Shown here: positions 4,900-14,601 of the stretch, piece by piece | Numbering within the stretch: position 1 is the first letter of the stretch | How the letters are laid out: each line of letters starts with the position of its first letter | Source: Symmetrospora coprosmae | Lineage: Eukaryota > Basidiomycota > Cystobasidiomycetes > Symmetrosporaceae | Reading direction: 5' to 3' | Assembly (NCBI GenBank): GCA_008802785.1 | Contig: VUYT01000011.1 | Span: 248,001 to 312,000, forward strand | Length of the DNA: 64,000 nt | Translations under genes and position numbers: made by a program | The notes under the pieces: model-generated | Told to the model about the DNA's origin: nothing | The model's input: the letters and a program-made list of their open reading frames with translations, nothing else | The model's database searches: none

Positions 4900-6239
4900 T
4901 CACACGTACTTTGACAGCAGCAGCTCCTTCTCGCAGACCTGGCTCGCCGAAAGGGGCCACCTCCTCCCGCTCCCTTCCCGGTCCGGCGCTCTCGATGACG
5001 GCGGCCTTCCCCATCTCCCTACCTCCTCCTTCATGTACCTAGTGTAAAGCACAGCTGACTGCATGCCATCCATCGTAATCTGGAGTATCGATCGCGAAAG
5101 ACCAGCTACATCGATGCAGCAGAACAACTGATCTTGAGTGCGGTCTGACTGCTCTGGCCGGCCTGCCGCGAGCACATGTGCTATTTCGGCCACAGGGTGG
5201 AACTCGTCCATGTTCTGCTCGACTTGATCGTCGAGATACGGCATAGGATCACGGAAGACGACCTTGTCTGCATGGCACTCGCCGATCTGGCCTGTTCAGC
5301 GGTTAACGAGATGGGCATGATCAACACAGATCTTGGGCAAGACTCGAGGGCAGACACCTACCTGACATGATCGACCCTGGAGCGCAGAAAGCGTCGACGC
5401 AGCGAGTGATGGTTGCCATTGGCGTTACTCTTCCCTCCTTCTCGAGTCTGTCGAAGAAGTCCGCGGGACCAAGATTCGTTCTGACAACTAATGGTGCGAG
5501 AGCGTTGACCGTAATGCCTTCTCTGGCGACCTTGACGCCGAGGCTTCGCACAAGACCGAGCAGGGCCGTCTTGCTCGCTGCGTACAGCGCATCGTTCGGG
5601 AAGGGGTAGAGCGACGCCGCGCTGCCTGTAACGACGATCCTGCCTCGCATACCTGTGGCATCGCGCCCCTGCCGGCGAAAGTACGCGAGCGCTAAGTAAG
5701 CGGTGTACAGAGAGCCAGTGACGTTGACGTCCATCACGCGCAGGTCCGGCGCAGGCAGCCCGTCTAATGCGAGCGGACCGCGGGGTAGCACTGAAGTGGC
5801 AAAGTGCCTGGGTTCGGAGGTGCGGAAGCCCCGCATTTGCGAGATGCCCGCATTCGCGACGACGATGTCAATGCGGGAAGTTCCGAAGCTGCGACAGGTT
5901 TCTGCGAAGAGATTGAGCAGGGAGGACCAGGAGGATACGTCGGTCTGTACGAAGATTGCGCTGGTGCCATGTGCGTCAGCTTGGTCCACGTTGACCGTCA
6001 GAAATAACTTACTTTGCGCCCAGCGCAGCGGCTGCTCGGTTGCCGGCAACAGCGTCGAGATCTGCAAGCGCGACATAGGCGCCTTGTGCAATGAGGTGAG
6101 ATGCAATACCATATCCGATTCCGCTGGCGGCGCCTTCGTCGATAAAAATGCATCCTACCGGTCAGCTCCACGAGTTCAGAGTCTTCTGTAAAATGTACTG
6201 CTCACCTGTTACAATGCATGTCTGTCCTTTGTATAGCAT
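4900..6239 (-). CDS. Short-chain dehydrogenase/reductase, classical type
   Basis: NAD(P)-dependent oxidoreductase; substrate unknown. Starting at 6239 (MLYKGQTCIVTG), an intron splits the cofactor motif TGAASGIG. A 52-nt intron follows near 5963-6014, leading to AIFVQTDVSSW. Later motifs are NAG (VVANAGIS), the catalytic serine region VVTGSAASLYP and YAASK (the YxxxK pair). Another intron near 5309-5364 leads to a C-terminal block GQIGECHADKVVFRDP common in fungal members. The frame then stays open to a stop at 4900, giving a tail longer than usual. The true C-terminus may be earlier (about 5050-5150) through an intron I cannot place. It is divergent from the SDR array that starts at 6826. 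Confidence 0.8.
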
Positions 6240-6825: not shown

Positions 6826-8474
6826 ATGGCAGGCATCGTCGAAAGCGTGAAGGTGAGCTCGACCCGGCAGGCGGCGTTGTCAGGGTTCCGACAGCGTGTT
6901 GCAAGCAGGCACAGACCTAGTCCAAGCCGCACACTACTGACATCGTCTGAATCGCACCCGGCTCAGAACACCATCGTTGAGAACTTCGGCGGCGGCGACA
7001 AGCTTGCCTCGGCTGAGAACAGGTGCGCTTTCGGCGATCTACGCTGTCCAACAGAAGTTATTACCATGTAGTGGCTCACATGCGCTCGTGCTCTGCAGCT
7101 TCTCTCTCGACGAGACCCCAGATCTCTCTGGCAAGGTCGCTATCGTCACAGGCGGGTCGGAGGGCATTGGATACGGTGCCACGCACACCTTCCTCAAGCA
7201 TGGCATCAAGCAGCTCTTTGTGATCTGCGAGAACAAGGAGGTCGCGGATGGCGCCAACAAGGCCCTAGCGCAGGAGCTCGGACAGGATGCTGCGGACCGA
7301 ACGACCTGGCTACACCTCGACTTGTCGGACTGGGCTGCCATCCCCAAGGTTGCCGAGCAGATCACGAGCAAGACCGACAGGATTGACATCCTCTTCAACA
7401 ATGCTGGCAGAGGCATCATGTCGTATGAGCTCACGGACTATGGCGTGGATCGTCACATGGCTCTGGTGAGTCTGCTGCAGGCTCTTTCTCGCATAACCAC
7501 CGAATGGCAGGGCGCTAATACTCCTTGCTGGATGTACAGAACCACATGGGACACGTCATCTTGACATCGCATCTCCTGCCGCTCATCAAGGAGACAGCCT
7601 CAAAGGGCAATACTGTTCGAATCGTCAATCAGGCTTCGAACGCTCACCAGGGCGCCCCGTCCGACGTTAAGTTCGCCTCGCTGGAGGAGCTCAACCAAGA
7701 CCTGGGTCCGAATGGCCAGTACGGCCGCTCCAAGCTCGCTGGCATCCTGTATGCCAAGTACTTGAACAAGGTGGGTCGCATGTAGACGACACGTCAAGAA
7801 GAATGGCGCTGAACAAATGTGCCCATCCCATTTACAGCACTTGACGAGCAAGCACCCGAACATTCTGGTCAATGCATGCCATCCGGGCTTCGTGAGCACA
7901 AAGATGTCTAAGGTGAGGGTATTGCGGACTCGACACTTGACGCGAGTGTGCACAGACTGACGACACTGCCCCGCCCACAGATCGACATTCTAGGTGAGAG
8001 CATTGCCGACTGTCGGGCAGCTGTCATATAACTATAAGCTGACCCTCAATCTCAGAGCCGTACCCGTTGGCGGGCTATGCTATGGCTGTGGGCATGGAGT
8101 GCGTGGACCCGTCTTGGCCAACCGGTGTCGGAGCCTTGGGACGCTGACAAGACCATCCCTATGCATCACTCAGGCCGTTCAAGAAGGACCAGTTTGAGGG
8201 AGCAGTTTCTGGCGTTTACGCCTGCACCAAGACCGAGAAGGTGTGTCCTTTGCCCTTCTTCTATCCTTCACGCCCATGCTGATGTAGGAGATTTTCTGCC
8301 GCTTCACAGTCCGGAAGGTACTATTGCGTGCCCTGCGTCGACGAGCCTGGCAGCAGTCAGGCAAATGACATGGACCTTGCGGAGCAGATGATGAAGCTCA
8401 CTGGAGAGGTGGTCGCTTCCAAGACGGCCAGCCAGTCTGTGGACAAGGGTTGCCCTATCAAGGAGGATCATTAG
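6826..8474 (+). CDS. SDR-family oxidoreductase, array copy A
   Basis: Retinol-dehydrogenase-like SDR; substrate unknown. Exons are 6826-6852, 6967-7022, 7099-7465, 7540-7770, 7838-7912, 7981-7993, 8056-8098, 8174-8240 and 8310-8474, giving about 347 residues. The motifs are TGGSEGIG (cofactor), NNAGRG, NQASNAHQ (catalytic serine region) and YGRSK (catalytic Tyr and Lys). No signal peptide or presequence is seen, so it is probably cytosolic. The sixth exon is only 13 nt, because an intron absent from copy C splits a 56-nt exon into 13+43. The tail ends KGCPIKEDH, and no membrane anchor is seen. Confidence 0.88.
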
Positions 8475-8838
8475 AAGGATCTGCATTCGCGCGCATTAGC
8501 AGTTGACGAAATCCGTTACATGTAGCTCTAAGAGTCTATCCATAGCATTTGAAAGCCCTGCAAGAAAGCAATACATCTCATATGCCAGAAAACATTGATG
8601 TGAGCTGATCTAAGCAACTTATCGCGTGCATGTCGATCCCGTCAGTTGCCGCTGTACCTGGGCTGGCCGATCTGCTCTGTTGCGATGACGCGTCCCGGAC
8701 TCTGCCCCTCCCGATGTGCGGGGGTCCGGACACGCGTGAGCCTTTACGAACCAATCTGCTGCTTCCCTTTGCATCAACCAGACTTGCCTCACTAGACCCT
8801 TCCAGCAACCCTACTCAACGCACATACGCACAGACAGC
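8475..8838. other. Spacer between SDR copies A and B
   Basis: 364 bp holding the 3' end of copy A and the promoter of copy B. Immediately before the B start lies a C/A-rich stretch. No separate gene is seen. Confidence 0.5.
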
Positions 8839-10444
8839 ATGTCAGGCATCGTCGAAGCTGCAAAGGTGAGCTCGCCCGGTGCGAGGACGCGAATGACCCA
8901 GCAGGGTTCTGCAACCAAGACCCCTCCGCCAACACAATTGAAGGACGGCTGAGCCGTCCCTGACGTTCACCTGTTCTTTCTACGACTGACTCAGAACACC
9001 ATCGTCGAGAACTTCGGCGGCGGTGACAAGCTCGCTTCAGCCGAGAACAGGTGCGCTTTCGGCGATCCACACTGTCCAACAGAAGCTATTGCCATGTAAT
9101 GGCTCACATGTGCTCGTGCTCGGCAGCTTCTCCCTCGAGGAGACATCCGACCTTTCTGGCAAGGTTGCCGTCGTCACGGGCGGATCAGAGGGCATCGGAT
9201 ATGGCGTTACCTACACGTTCCTCAAGCACGGCATCAAGAAGCTCTTCGTCATCAGCAATGAGAAGGAAGTTGCCGACGGCGCAAACAAGGCCATTGCGCA
9301 GGAGCTGGGACAGGAGGCTGCGGACCGAACCACCTGGATCCACCTCGACTTGTCGGACTGGGCCGCCATCCCCAAGGTTGCGGATCAGATCACGAGCAAC
9401 ACCGACAGGATTGACATCCTCCTCAACAATGCCGCTCGAGGTATCATGACGTACCAGCTCACCGATTACGGCGTCGATCTCCACATGGCCACTGTGGGTT
9501 GATCGGCCATTTTGATGGTATTCTGCCACCATCTGCCCGCGCTGATGCCCGTATATCTCATGTAGAACCACATGGGCCATGTCATCCTGACCTCTCATCT
9601 GTTGCCACTCATCAAGGAGACCGCATCGAAAGGGAACACCGTCCGCATCGTCAATCAGGCTTCCAACGCTCACCAGGGTGCCCCATCGGACGTCAATTTC
9701 GCCTCGCTTGACGAGCTCAACCAGGATCTTGGCCCCAATGGACAGTATGGTCGATCCAAGCTCGCTGGCATCCTGTATGCCAAGTACCTCAACAAGGTTG
9801 GTCGGACCTGCAATGATACACCCGGGACTAATGCTATCGGCAAGGCATCAGGACTGACTTTCCACAATACTGCATAGCACCTCACGTCTAAGCAGCCCAA
9901 TATTCTGGCCAATGCCACACACCCAGGCTTCGTCAGCACCAGGCAGTCCAAGGTGTCAGTCACGACGCAATCTAAAGGTTGCAACCGGTCATGAGCTAAA
10001 GCGTGCAGAGCCTACCAGCCACATTCATGAGCCGTACCCTTTGGGAGGTTATGCAATGTCTGTTGGCTTCGAGTGAGTGCCTCGTCTCCACTTTCCAATT
10101 TCCCGCGGTCCCAGGCTGATCGAAATGGATGTTGGCACCGAGCAGGCCCTTCAAGAAGGACCAGTTCGAGGGCGCCGTGTCAGCTGTCTTTGCGTGCACC
10201 AAGGCCGAGAAGGTGAGTCTCTCTTTCGTGTTGATGTATGTTGGTCTCATTCTGATTGGATGGCCATCCCCGCCACAAGTCCGGACGCTACTACTGCGTG
10301 CCAGCTGTCGATGAGCCGGGAAGCAGCCAGGCGAACGACATGGAGCTCGCCGAGCAGCTCATGAAGCTTACTCGCGAGGTCGTCGCATCCAAGACTGCCA
10401 GCCAGTCCGTTGACAAGGGATGCCCCATCAAGGAGGATCACTAG
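8839..10444 (+). CDS. SDR-family oxidoreductase, array copy B
   Basis: Close paralogue of copy A. Exons are 8839-8865, 8995-9050, 9127-9493, 9566-9796, 9878-9952, 10011-10072, 10146-10212 and 10280-10444, giving about 349 residues. Motifs are TGGSEGIG, NNAARG (Ala replaces the Gly of NNAG), NQASNAHQ and YGRSK. The sixth exon appears to use an acceptor in gtgcagag, which adds two codons (Pro-Thr) relative to A and C. The upstream CAG would shift the frame. This is the only plausible in-frame acceptor I found, so this junction is less certain. The second intron (9051-9126) is almost the same sequence as in copy A. Confidence 0.86.
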
Positions 10445-10793
10445 GATATGTTACGCAGGGAGCGCGCTTCGATCAGTGACGGACGAGCAGTTGCATGTAC
10501 CTCTACTTTCCGCGCAATACACCAGTGCACTCGAGGGAAGTGCTTGCTTGGATGTCCTGAGCTTAGGTCAGCTGTGCCCCCCACGTGTGACGATCCCGTC
10601 CACTTACCGCTGTTCCTGTGCCTGGCCGATCTGGATGATGGCGCGCCCCCCTGGCCGATGGGCGGAGCTTTGGAACGCGTCGCGCTCGAAGCTTCAGCCA
10701 GTGTGCAGCTTTCCTTCCCGGCAATTGGGACTAGTATCAATTTTTCAATCCACGACGCATAACGTCCCTCCACACATACATCCATTCGCGTCC
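10445..10793. other. Spacer between SDR copies B and C
   Basis: 349 bp with the copy B terminator and copy C promoter. The 40 bp before the ATG are C/A-rich. No additional gene is seen. Confidence 0.5.
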
Positions 10794-12667
10794 ATGTCCG
10801 GCATCAAGGCTGCCAGAATGAGCGAGGCTCTCACTCGCAGTGGGACGATAACAGCAGTAGCAGCGTCAGTAGGGAGGTCATCGGCGAGGACGATCCTGCA
10901 CGGACGCACCATCTCAACAGCTCAACAGGTCGCAGGCCCCTCGATGCGGCAGCCATCATTAGCCGCCAGTTTTTCTACGCTCAATGCCAGACGCGCGGGC
11001 TTTCCCAGATCGTTCAAGGAGGGACAGGTCCGTCAATACAGCATTGCTGGAAAGATTAAAGTTGGCCACCTTCCGCTCGCCGTCTTACTGTTCCACTGCT
11101 GCGCTTCCTATCCATGACGTCGGCCGCTTCTCTGGCCCCTTCCTCCGTCCCTTCCCTTGCCGCCATCGCCTACCAGAGTACCCTGGAGATGGGCCTGTGC
11201 TGACATGACACACTGCTTATGATCTCACAGAACACCATCGTCGAGAACTTTGGCGGAGGCGAGAAGTACGCGTCTCCCGAGGACAGGTGAGATGACTCGG
11301 ATGACCGTAGCGGTTGCGGCAGTGACAGATTCCAGCTTGGAGCTGATTCCGCCTCTAATTCTGTCCTCGACAGCTTCTCGCTTGAAGATGTGCCGGACCT
11401 CAGCGGGAAGGTCGCTGTTGTGACTGGCGGATCCGAGGGCATCGGCTATGGCGCAACGCACACCTTCCTCAACAAAGGCATCAAGAAGCTCTTCGTCATC
11501 AGCGTAGACAAAGAGGTCGCGGATGGAGCCAACAAGGCAATTGCGGAGGAGCTCGGGCAGGATGCGGCAGACAGGACCACATGGATTCATCTCGATCTGT
11601 CGGACTGGGCTGCCATTCCCAAGGCGGCAGAGCAGATCACTAGCAGCACGGACAGGATAGACATTCTCTTCAACAACGCTGCGAGGGGAATAATGACCTA
11701 CCAGCTCACAGACTATGGCGTGGACCGACACATGGCACTGGTTGGTTGCGCCTCACTCACGCCATGTCCCCTAGACACTGATCCACTCGCCCATATCTCA
11801 GAACCACATGGGACATGTCATCTTGACCTCGCACTTGCTGCCACTTATCAAGGAAACCGCTTCCAAGGGCAATACCGTCCGCATCGCGAACCAGTCCTCA
11901 AATGCTCACCAGGGCGCACCGTCGGACGTCAAATTTGTATCGCTGGATGAGCTGAACCAGGATCTGGGTCCGAATGGCCAATACGGTCGATCCAAGCTTG
12001 CTGGCATCCTGTATGCCAAATACTTGAACAAGGTGACTTACTTCATCTGTGGGACCGCTCCATTACGTCATGCTGACATGTTCAGTACCTACAGCACTTG
12101 ACCTCCCAGTACCCGAACATCCTGGTCAACGCTAGTCATCCTGGCTTCGTCCGAACCAAGCAATCTAAGGTAGGCTCGTTAGCACGGCCAGTCCGAGGGG
12201 CATGCCGTAGATCATGGGCTGATCCTTATCCGGCGCCTTTTCAGTATGATATCCACGAGGCCATGCCTCTTGCAGGCTACGGCATGTCTGTCTTGATGGC
12301 GTGAGTTTCGGGAGCGCTGTTGCCGCATCGTAGCCGGAAGGTCTGACTTTTCGACCTCGATGCTCGCAGCCCGTTCCAGAAGGACCAGTTCGAGGGAGCC
12401 CTCTCAGGAGTGTTCGCGTGCACCAAGACCGAGAAGGTGCGTCGACACCACGGCTCTCGGCCTCGCCGTTCGTCCGGTTGACCACGTACTATCTGAGCCC
12501 TCCAGTCCGGCCGCTACTATTGCGTCCCTTGCGTCGACGAGCCTGGGAGCGCCATGGCGAACGACATGGACCTCGCAGAGCAGCTCATGAAGCTCACTCG
12601 CGAGGTTGTCGCGTCCAAGACGGCAAGCCAGTCTGTTGACAAGGGCTGCCCGATGCAGGACTACTAG
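10794..12667 (+). CDS. SDR-family oxidoreductase, array copy C, with putative mitochondrial presequence
   Basis: Third paralogue. Exons are 10794-11060, 11231-11286, 11374-11740, 11802-12032, 12095-12169, 12245-12300, 12370-12436 and 12506-12667, giving about 426 residues. Exon 1 encodes 89 residues instead of 9. The extra 80 are rich in Arg, Ser, Ala and Thr and nearly free of acidic residues (for example RRAGFPRSFK and VRQYSIAGK), as in mitochondrial targeting presequences. From NTIVENFGGGEKYASPED onward it aligns with A and B. Motifs are TGGSEGIG, NNAARG, NQSSNAHQ and YGRSK. It probably performs the same type of reaction inside mitochondria; the substrate is unknown. The ATG at 10794 corresponds to the start of B (MSGI). 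Confidence 0.87.
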
Positions 12668-13030: not shown

Positions 13031-14601
13031 ATGTCGTCCACCACCGCAAACGGCCAGGACTCGCGCCGCCTCTTCAAGCCAGTCAAGCTCGGCAATGTAG
13101 AGCTCACCAACCGCCTCGCAATGGCACCTCTGACGCGATTCCGTGCGGACAACCATGTGCGTGCACGATGGCAGAGCTGGAGGAGCCGGTCGCCAGAGGG
13201 CGGGAGTGTCGGGCTGACTCAGTGCGACTCTTCACGCTTCTTCTGAACCCTCGTTATGCATGACAGATCCCCCAAGACAGGCATGCCACCTACTACTCCC
13301 AGCGTGCATCTGCTGGCCTCATCATCAGCGAGGCCACGTACATCGCTGAAGAGGGTGAGCGAGCTTTCCCGTTAGACCTCGCCAGCCCGGCCAGCGGGTG
13401 GGAGATGGTGCACTTTGCACTGTTACAGCAGCTAATGTATACTTATCGTGCTCTCTTAGCCGGAGGCATGCCCCACGTCCCCGGAATCCACTCGAAGGAG
13501 CAGATTGCAGGCTGGAAGAAGACGACCGAAGCCGTTCACAAGGCGGGCGGGCACATCTACTGCCAGCTGTGGGCGCTCGGTCGCGCAAACCCGGGAAACG
13601 CAGACGTGCCCAAGGTTGTCTCCGCTAGCGACCAGCCTTTCGAGGGCGGCGCAAAGCCAGAAGCGCAGAGTGTCGAGGACATCAAGCGCTACGTCGGCCT
13701 GTACACCACCGCGGCAAAGAACGCCATCGAGGCCGGCTTCGACGGAGTCGAGATCCACAGTGTGAGTAACTGTACAAGCAGGTATCTGTGAACCAGACTG
13801 ACCCGTGAATATTACCGCCCGCCAGGCCAACGGATACCTGTTGCAGCAGTACATCGACAAGACTTCCAACAACCGCACGGACGACTACGGCGGATCTCTC
13901 GAGAACAGGACGCGCTTTGTCCGGGAGGTGATCAAGTCCGTCACGGATGCTATCGGGCAGGAAAAGACTGGCATCCGGTGGAGCCCCTTCGGCACCTTCC
14001 AGGGAATGGCCGGCAAGTCGGACAGCGCGTACGATGATTACAAGTACCTCGTCCAGCACATCCGGGACGACTACCCGAAGTTTGCGTGAGTCGGAGCCGA
14101 CACACGCTGTGTGCGGAAAAGCGCAAGCTGATCGTCTCGAAATGCGAATGCAGGTACGTCCACTTTGTTGAGGACACGGAAGTGTGGCGTGGACTGCCTG
14201 AGAGCCAGATCAAGCCTCGGTCGACCGATCCCTTCCGCTCCATCCTGCGCTCGCCCGTCGAGGGCAAACACGACGACAAGCTTGGTGATTTCTACCCCGA
14301 GCCCACGGCAGAGAATCCAACACTGTTCATCGCCTGCGGTGATTTCAAGACCGAGTCGTCGATCCGCGTAAGCGAGCTCAAGGGCGACCTCATCGCAATC
14401 GGCCGCAGCTACATCAGCAACCCAGACCTCAAGGAGCGCATCGAGAACGATCTGCCATGGACGCAGTACAATAGGGACACGTTCTACCTCCCGCTCTCCG
14501 ACACTGGCTACCTCGACTACGCGGTCGCCGGCCAGCGTGGACACGGAGAGGAGGCAGAAGAGAAGAAAAAGCAGGAGAAGGAAAACAAGGCAAACATGTA
14601 G
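13031..14601 (+). CDS. Old Yellow Enzyme family NADPH dehydrogenase
   Basis: FMN-dependent ene-reductase that uses NADPH to reduce activated C=C bonds; natural substrates are usually unknown. Exons are 13031-13156, 13267-13354, 13460-13761, 13826-14085 and 14154-14601 (1224 nt, 407 residues, normal for the family). The N-terminus LFKPVKLGNVELTNR and MAPLTRFRAD form the FMN-binding start of the barrel. The intron at 13762-13825 falls inside the substrate-binding motif HSANGYLLQQ, which carries the His/Asn pair and the proton-donor Tyr. TSNNRTDDYGGSLENR and the late IAIGRSYISNPDL (phosphate-binding loop) are also present. The C-terminus has an unusual charged Glu/Lys extension (about 20 residues). 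It sits beside three SDR genes, so shared substrates are possible but unproven. Confidence 0.93.

What the first reader, a model, noticed from the sequence alone, without database searches (positions are those of the whole stretch)
10794..12667. SDR copy C gained a mitochondrial presequence
Copies A and B start with nine-residue exons, while copy C has an 89-residue first exon of Arg/Ser/Ala-rich, acid-poor sequence before the shared core. Exon lengths after it match copies A and B exactly (56, 367, 231, 75, 56, 67 nt). This suggests the same enzyme activity was sent to a second compartment after duplication.
Basis: partly seen in the sequence, partly recalled or inferred. Interest (0 to 1): 0.72.

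Follow-up and report, generated by a model that had tools for sequence, protein, structure and literature searches.

The report
Third SDR copy with likely presequence
In a fungal genome, one of three neighbouring copies of a dehydrogenase gene starts with an extra 70 to 80 amino acids that look moderately like a mitochondrial address tag ending in a standard tag-removal site, so that copy may work in mitochondria; this is a known kind of evolutionary change and is not yet proven here.

Summary
Three tandem short-chain dehydrogenase (SDR) genes (A 6826-8474, B 8839-10444, C 10794-12667) are real, 85-88% identical in the core, dN/dS near 0.07. A and B open with a 9-codon exon. C opens with 78 or 89 codons, depending on which of two in-phase donors is used (11028 or 11061). 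The claimed exon match needs small corrections: A has an extra intron, B a 2-nt slid junction.
The extension is acid-poor (R10 K4 E2 D0), but its composition scores below all seven hand-picked presequences from the same genome, and 10 of 169 other open frames in the window reach its score. Its specific feature is VRQY|S, an MPP/Icp55-type site seven residues before the shared core. Three of eight in-genome control leaders (ATP1, ATP2, ACO1) carry RxYA. The site exists only in the 89-codon form.
C's ATG corresponds to B's: the flanks just upstream align and both proteins begin MSGI. So the extension lies inside or beyond the old exon 1 and is not a captured 5' exon. No second copy was found in the genome.
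Mitochondrial targeting of C is about even odds. No orthologue, RNA or localisation data were available, so 'gained' is unproven. Known kind; modest interest.

The parts
6826..8474 (+). SDR copy A, 347 aa; exons 6826-6852, 6967-7022, 7099-7465, 7540-7770, 7838-7912, 7981-7993, 8056-8098, 8174-8240, 8310-8474
   Evidence: open spliced frame, GT-AG introns
8839..10444 (+). SDR copy B, 347 aa; exons 8839-8865, 8995-9050, 9127-9493, 9566-9796, 9878-9954, 10019-10072, 10146-10212, 10280-10444
   Evidence: open spliced frame
10794..12667 (+). SDR copy C, 426 aa (or 415 aa); exons 10794-11060 (or -11027), 11231-11286, 11374-11740, 11802-12032, 12095-12169, 12245-12300, 12370-12436, 12506-12667
   Evidence: open spliced frame; Pfam adh_short 1.1e-23
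10794..11060 (+). extended first exon of C, candidate mitochondrial presequence (89 codons)
   Evidence: net +12, 2 acids in 89; low-confidence fold with helices 4-15, 18-35, 56-68, mean pLDDT 59.8
10794..10817 (+). codons 1-8 MSGIKAAR; MSGI is shared with B's first exon MSGIVEAAK
   Evidence: protein alignment; upstream flanks of B and C align
10818..10820 (+). in-frame Met9 with A at -3 (Met1 has T at -3); falls where B's exon-1 donor GTGAGC can be aligned to ATGAGC
   Evidence: donor homology itself not significant, p 0.165
11028..11033 (+). alternative in-phase donor GTCCGT (78-codon exon)
   Evidence: 7.18 bits
11031..11042 (+). RQYS codons, residues 80-83, MPP/Icp55-type -3R site R-X-Y|S
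   Evidence: coordinates; motif definition PMC8847149 passages; RTYA, RSYA, RNYA in 3 of 8 controls
11061..11066 (+). donor GTTGGC used in the 89-codon model
   Evidence: 5.71 bits
11061..11230 (+). intron 1 of C; pyrimidine fraction 0.68-0.80 in 50-nt windows starting at 11061-11141, 0.66 over the whole intron
11219..11221 (+). in-frame ATG inside intron 1 (MISQ|NTIVENF), possible but weak start of an internal short transcript
   Evidence: C at -3

Best explanation
Copy C makes the same SDR core as A and B with a cleavable N-terminal mitochondrial presequence. Exon 1 of C begins at the ATG that corresponds to B's (flanks and MSGI shared; shown) and runs on about 70-80 codons further than in A and B (shown as an open, in-phase frame; transcript not seen). 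In the 89-codon form translation starts at Met1 or Met9 (inferred), the acid-poor leader is imported through TOM/TIM23 (inferred), and MPP plus Icp55 cut at R80-Q-Y82|S83 (inferred). This leaves SIAGKIK-NTIVENFGGG, whose N-terminus is about as long as those of A (AGIVESVK-NTIVEN) and B once their Met is removed. A and B stay outside mitochondria (inferred). The extra sequence was probably recruited from local non-coding DNA, by run-on into the old intron 1 or by an insertion, and not copied from another gene (no second copy found; the mechanism is inferred).
For: Long in-frame extension joined in phase to a core under strong purifying selection (dN/dS about 0.07 in all three pairs). Net +12 with 2 acids in 89 residues. 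The -3R motif R-X-F/Y/L|A/S (PMC8847149 passages) sits 7 residues before the core. RxY[SA] in the last 19 residues occurs in 1 of 170 one-start-per-ORF open stretches, and 0 of those 170 combine it with the charge criteria (C not among them). Among 398 starts, 3 have the motif, two of them C's own Met1 and Met9, and only C Met1 meets all three criteria. RxY[SA] is in 3 of 8 in-genome control leaders (RTYA, RSYA, RNYA). Helix moment 0.615 lies within the control range 0.41-0.80, and a low-confidence fold is helical at 4-15, 18-35 and 56-68 with no helix or strand at the site. The exon-1 end codes Lys in all three copies in the 89-codon form. No other copy of the extension in the 20 Mb genome by DNA (1 match, itself; the tool skips common words) or protein (next hit E 0.135).
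Against: Composition score 0.05, below all 7 scored in-genome presequences by leave-one-out (0.15-0.42); 23 of 398 starts reach it, C itself included, in 11 of 170 ORFs, one of which (28738) is itself a likely real presequence. The controls were picked because a leader could be read by eye. 5 of 8 control leaders lack RxY[SA]. First 30 residues net +3 with one acid, reached by 39% of 170 null stretches; the moment is reached by 21%. GC3 0.58 against 0.74 in the C core and 0.56 in noncoding; synonymous codon score inside the noncoding range (29.3% of windows as high). The better-scoring donor gives the 78-codon form, which lacks RQYS. About 82 residues exceeds the usual 20-60 (PMC7723863 passage). 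The fold has mean pLDDT 59.8. The motif was noticed after the sequence was read.
Confidence: 0.52

Rival explanations
1. The extension is translated or not, but has no targeting role: a young run-on of exon 1, with the functional product of C being cytosolic (for example from an internal start at ATG 11219, MISQ-NTIVENF).
For: Synonymous codon use of exon 1 is noncoding-like. Composition is only moderately presequence-like. Pyrimidine-rich stretch inside intron 1 and an in-frame ATG 12 nt before exon 2.
Against: R-X-Y|S at the expected place. Amino-acid-level codon score of exon 1 above 98.9% of noncoding windows. The ATG at 11219 has C at -3, and other ATGs lie upstream of it in the intron.
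Confidence: 0.28
2. The long first exon is ancestral and A/B lost it; the change of compartment, if any, ran from mitochondrion to cytosol.
For: No outgroup polarises the change. A and B are the closest pair (dS 1.03 against 1.26 and 1.50) and seem to have exchanged sequence (intron 2 at 69/76 identity), so their shared short exon may be a single event.
Against: Noncoding-like codon use of the extension suggests youth. Met1-Ser-Gly-Ile is a start shared with B and differs from the M-L/M-F starts of 7 of 8 in-genome control leaders (the eighth starts MSL), as expected if a cytosolic start was reused.
Confidence: 0.2
3. C is dual-targeted from one gene: weak Met1, leaky scanning, alternative donors 11028/11061 or an internal start give mitochondrial and cytosolic forms.
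For: Met1 of C has T at -3, whereas A, B, C Met9 and 8 of 10 other start codons looked at have A (the other two, OYE and an IDH candidate, have C and G). Two in-phase donors. Start-context dual targeting is common in Cryptococcus (PMC7049704 passages).
Against: A Met9 start still keeps most of the leader. The next in-frame Met (51) gives no clean cytosolic form and has T at -3. No RNA data.
Confidence: 0.2

Closest known systems
Protein subcellular relocalization (neolocalization) after gene duplication, e.g. human mt-cy families (PMC2790464: abstract and one section read)
   Same: duplicates differing by presence of an N-terminal mitochondrial-type signal
   Different: here no localisation data and no outgroup; the extension continues an old first exon in a tandem array
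Classical short-chain dehydrogenase/reductase, adh_short (Pfam PF00106; best NCBIfam PRK06197-like, 123.8 bits, below its cut-off of 268)
   Same: TGGSEGIG, NNA, YGRSK and HPGF motifs in all three copies
   Different: substrate unknown; the NTIVENFGGG arm and the presequence-like leader lie outside the Pfam match (120-263 of 426)
Start-context dual targeting in fungi (PMC7049704, passages read)
   Same: long form with N-terminal mitochondrial-type signal, first AUG in weak context
   Different: the downstream AUGs here do not clearly make a leaderless form

Membership tests
cleavable mitochondrial presequence | net positive, almost no acidic residues (PMC12306757 and PMC7723863, passages) | tested here: inconclusive
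   +12 and 2 acids in 89, but +3 and 1 acid in the first 30 against +4 to +8 and 0 in 8 controls
cleavable mitochondrial presequence | amphipathic helix | tested here: inconclusive
   moment 0.615 (12-mer), control range 0.41-0.80, but 21% of 170 null stretches reach it; single-sequence fold helical at 4-15, 18-35, 56-68 with mean pLDDT 59.8
cleavable mitochondrial presequence | MPP/Icp55 site R-X-F/Y/L|A/S near the mature start | tested here: met
   RQY|S at residues 80-83 in the 89-codon form only
cleavable mitochondrial presequence | import and cleavage shown | not testable with these tools
   needs tagging or N-terminomics
short-chain dehydrogenase/reductase | TGxxxGxG, NNA, Ser, YxxxK (motifs recalled) | tested here: met
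   all present in A, B and C; adh_short E 1.1e-23 for C
relocalization after duplication | paralogues in different compartments | not testable with these tools
   no localisation data
relocalization after duplication | direction polarised by outgroup | tested here: inconclusive
   a 122-residue exon piece found no relative above 38% in the genome besides the three copies; viral contigs gave none

The most novel reading that the evidence does not exclude
A single G-to-A change turned B-type donor GTGAGC into ATGAGC in copy C. It abolished the first splice site and at the same stroke created an in-frame AUG in strong context (Met9), so that former intron 1 became the presequence. A second in-phase donor 33 nt upstream of the other one may now switch the MPP/Icp55 site in or out.
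Probability: 0.12. Interest if true: 0.58.

Novelty: new member of a known kind. Interest (0 to 1): 0.3.

Why it matters
If true, it is a compact case in which the raw material and route of a new mitochondrial presequence can be read off against two intact tandem sisters, in place and without exon capture. That bears on how cytosolic enzymes acquire organelle addresses.

Tried and rejected
Captured presequence from another gene: not supported within the held genome. The DNA search of 10821-11230 found only itself (the tool skips common words), and the 89-aa protein search found itself and a weak hit (E 0.135, 37% over residues 6-62) that I take as chance.

New 5' exon with a new promoter: disfavoured. 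The 200-nt flanks just upstream of B and C align (score 90, maximum of 300 shuffles 50), and spacers A-B and B-C align (129, maximum of 200 shuffles 53). The 'up400' score of 174 is inflated by coding ends of the preceding copies and is not used; my notebook entry quoted it.

Donor-to-AUG homology: extension of the B-C alignment beyond codon 4 is not significant (p 0.165; A-C 0.585; local tests p 0.16 for B and 0.48 for A). The junction-anchored B value p 0.002 includes the shared MSGI codons and is not counted. The insertion alternative (A's exon-1 end against C's donor 11061) gave p 0.012 in one of six tests, so it is equally undecided.

The genome-contig scan (prokaryotes only) was not used. 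L004-L006 (38, 31 and 27% identical) were read in three forward frames only and gave nothing usable.

Controls: 19 regions were fetched (10, 9). Seven gave a leader I could read by eye (ATP1, ATP2, CIT1, PDH-E2, KGD2, SOD2, ACO1); an eighth, EF-G-like, came from the window. The other 12 were not used: 7 were translated but gave no clear mitochondrial leader or were other genes (L035, L040, L043, L044, L068, L069, L072), and 5 were not translated (L038, L067, L070, L073, L074). This choice favours clear leaders. HSP60 was sought through PF00118 but not picked out among the chaperonin hits.

Papers: searches. None of their listings showed a presequence made by a lost donor becoming an AUG; these searches do not prove it is absent from print. 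Passages of PMC4585086 came from its reference list only and are not used. A patulin-degrading SDR link was seen in listings only and not followed.

Full report
Setting. The window is part of contig C2 (248001-312000) of an unnamed 20.05 Mb, 77-contig genome with no relatives held. It is a fungus by gene structure (inference). Three same-strand SDR genes stand in tandem: A 6826-8474, B 8839-10444, C 10794-12667. C matches Pfam adh_short at 1.1e-23 and many SDRs of known structure, best 3rd5 at 7.3e-14. TGGSEGIG, NNA, a Ser, YGRSK and HPGF are present in all three (motifs recalled). Pairwise core identity is 298, 288 and 286 of 338 residues (AB, AC, BC), dS 1.03, 1.26 and 1.50, dN 0.072, 0.095 and 0.099. 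All three are therefore old duplicates kept by purifying selection. With a 122-residue exon piece of A as query, the next match in the genome is 38% identical.

The observation. A and B have 9-codon first exons, and C has a much longer one. Two in-phase donors compete in C: CAG|GTCCGT at 11028 (78 codons, 7.18 bits) and AAA|GTTGGC at 11061 (89 codons, 5.71 bits). Both fall within the leave-one-out range of the 21 other donors, 0.54-13.32, and the order held in all 12 variants tried.

Where the extension sits. C begins MSGIKAAR and B MSGIVEAAK. The 200 nt upstream of the two start codons align with score 90 (maximum of 300 shuffles 50), and the two intergenic spacers align with score 129 (maximum of 200 shuffles 53). 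C's ATG is thus the counterpart of B's, and the extension lies within or after the old first exon. The tempting idea that B's donor GTGAGC became C's ATGAGC, killing the splice site and making Met9, is not supported statistically (p 0.165). An insertion model is equally open. No other copy of the extension was found in the genome by DNA or protein.

Is it a presequence? For: the 89 residues hold 14 basic and 2 acidic residues. The -3R motif R-X-F/Y/L|A/S for MPP then Icp55 (PMC8847149, passages read) is present as RQY|S, leaving a 7-residue stub before the shared core, about the length of the A and B first exons without Met. In the same genome 3 of 8 control leaders carry RxY[SA] (ATP1 RTYA, ATP2 RSYA, ACO1 RNYA); CIT1 has VRYAS, and KGD2 and the EF-G-like leader have R-X-L-A elsewhere. 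Of 170 one-start-per-ORF open stretches of the window (six frames, real coding frames included, C not included), 14 meet the charge criteria, 1 has RxY[SA] and 6 have Rx[YFL][SA] in the last 19 residues, and none has RxY[SA] and the charge criteria together. Of all 398 starts, 34 meet the charge criteria and 3 have RxY[SA], two of these being C's own Met1 and Met9; only C Met1 meets all three. In simulated ORFs the charge criteria are met by 1.6% (noncoding dinucleotides) and 3.4% (exon 1's own), 2000 each. AlphaFold2 on the leader alone gives helices 4-15, 18-35 and 56-68 and no helix or strand at the site, at mean pLDDT 59.8: compatible, weak.

Against: a composition score trained on 7 in-genome presequences gives C 0.05, below every control by leave-one-out (0.15-0.42). 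23 of 398 starts, C included, in 11 of 170 ORFs reach that score. The controls were those of 19 fetched regions in which a leader could be read by eye, which favours clear ones. Five of the 8 control leaders lack RxY[SA]. The first 30 residues have net +3 and one acid against +4 to +8 and none in 8 controls, and 39% of the 170 null stretches reach +3. The best 12-mer moment, 0.615, is within the control range 0.41-0.80 but 21% of null stretches reach it. GC3 is 0.58 against 0.74 in the C core and 0.56 in noncoding, and the synonymous codon score is inside the noncoding range, while the amino-acid-level score is above 98.9% of noncoding windows. The site exists only if the weaker donor is used. 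At about 82 residues the leader is longer than the usual 20-60 (PMC7723863, passage).

Start codons. A, B and 8 of 8 mitochondrial control genes have A at -3. C's Met1 has T and Met9 has A. Two further starts looked at, OYE and an IDH candidate, have C and G. Met9 may be a major start; the leader would then be 8 residues shorter. Leaky scanning past weak first AUGs for dual targeting is known in Cryptococcus (PMC7049704, passages). A short form from ATG 11219 in intron 1 is possible but has weak context and upstream ATGs.

Direction of change. No outgroup was reached. A and B are closest in sequence but seem to share converted sequence (intron 2 at 69 of 76), so parsimony among the three copies is unsafe. 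Noncoding-like codon use and the reused MSGI start favour a gain in C (inference).

Comparison with the known. Gain or loss of an N-terminal mitochondrial signal between duplicates is well documented (PMC2790464, abstract and one section read). If confirmed this is a new member of that kind. The route by run-on of the first exon would be the interesting part, and it is unproven.

Limits. TargetP and MitoFates are not available here. The window's genome has no relatives held and there are no RNA data. The leader fold is a single-sequence, low-confidence model.

Noticed in passing
7023-7098 and 9051-9126: Intron 2 of A and B is 69/76 identical while their introns 3-7 are near shuffle level, pointing to a short recent gene conversion.
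   Followed up: partly
7994-8055: A has an extra 62-nt intron splitting the 56-nt exon into 13+43 nt.
   Followed up: partly
9953-9954 and 10019: B's exon 5/6 junction is slid by 2 nt and uses donor GTCAGT, the weakest of the 21 donors.
   Followed up: partly
8475-8838 and 10445-10793: The A-B and B-C spacers are homologous (score 129, maximum of 200 shuffles 53) although most introns have diverged, suggesting conserved promoter elements or conversion.
   Followed up: partly
13031-14601 (+): An Oxidored_FMN (old yellow enzyme type) gene directly follows C (8.5e-22 on one exon piece).
   Followed up: no
5321-6154 (-): A different SDR frame lies on the other strand upstream of A (adh_short 8.4e-25 on a 214-residue piece).
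   Followed up: no
28738 (+): A gene with an acid-poor leader of about 80 residues ([17 protein letters not shown]...) that looks like mitochondrial EF-G; name recalled from [10 protein letters not shown], no Pfam match to the piece given.
   Followed up: partly
11061-11170: The first part of C's intron 1 is pyrimidine-rich (0.68-0.80 in 50-nt windows); the whole intron is 0.66, at the top of the range of the other introns of the array (0.43-0.67).
   Followed up: no
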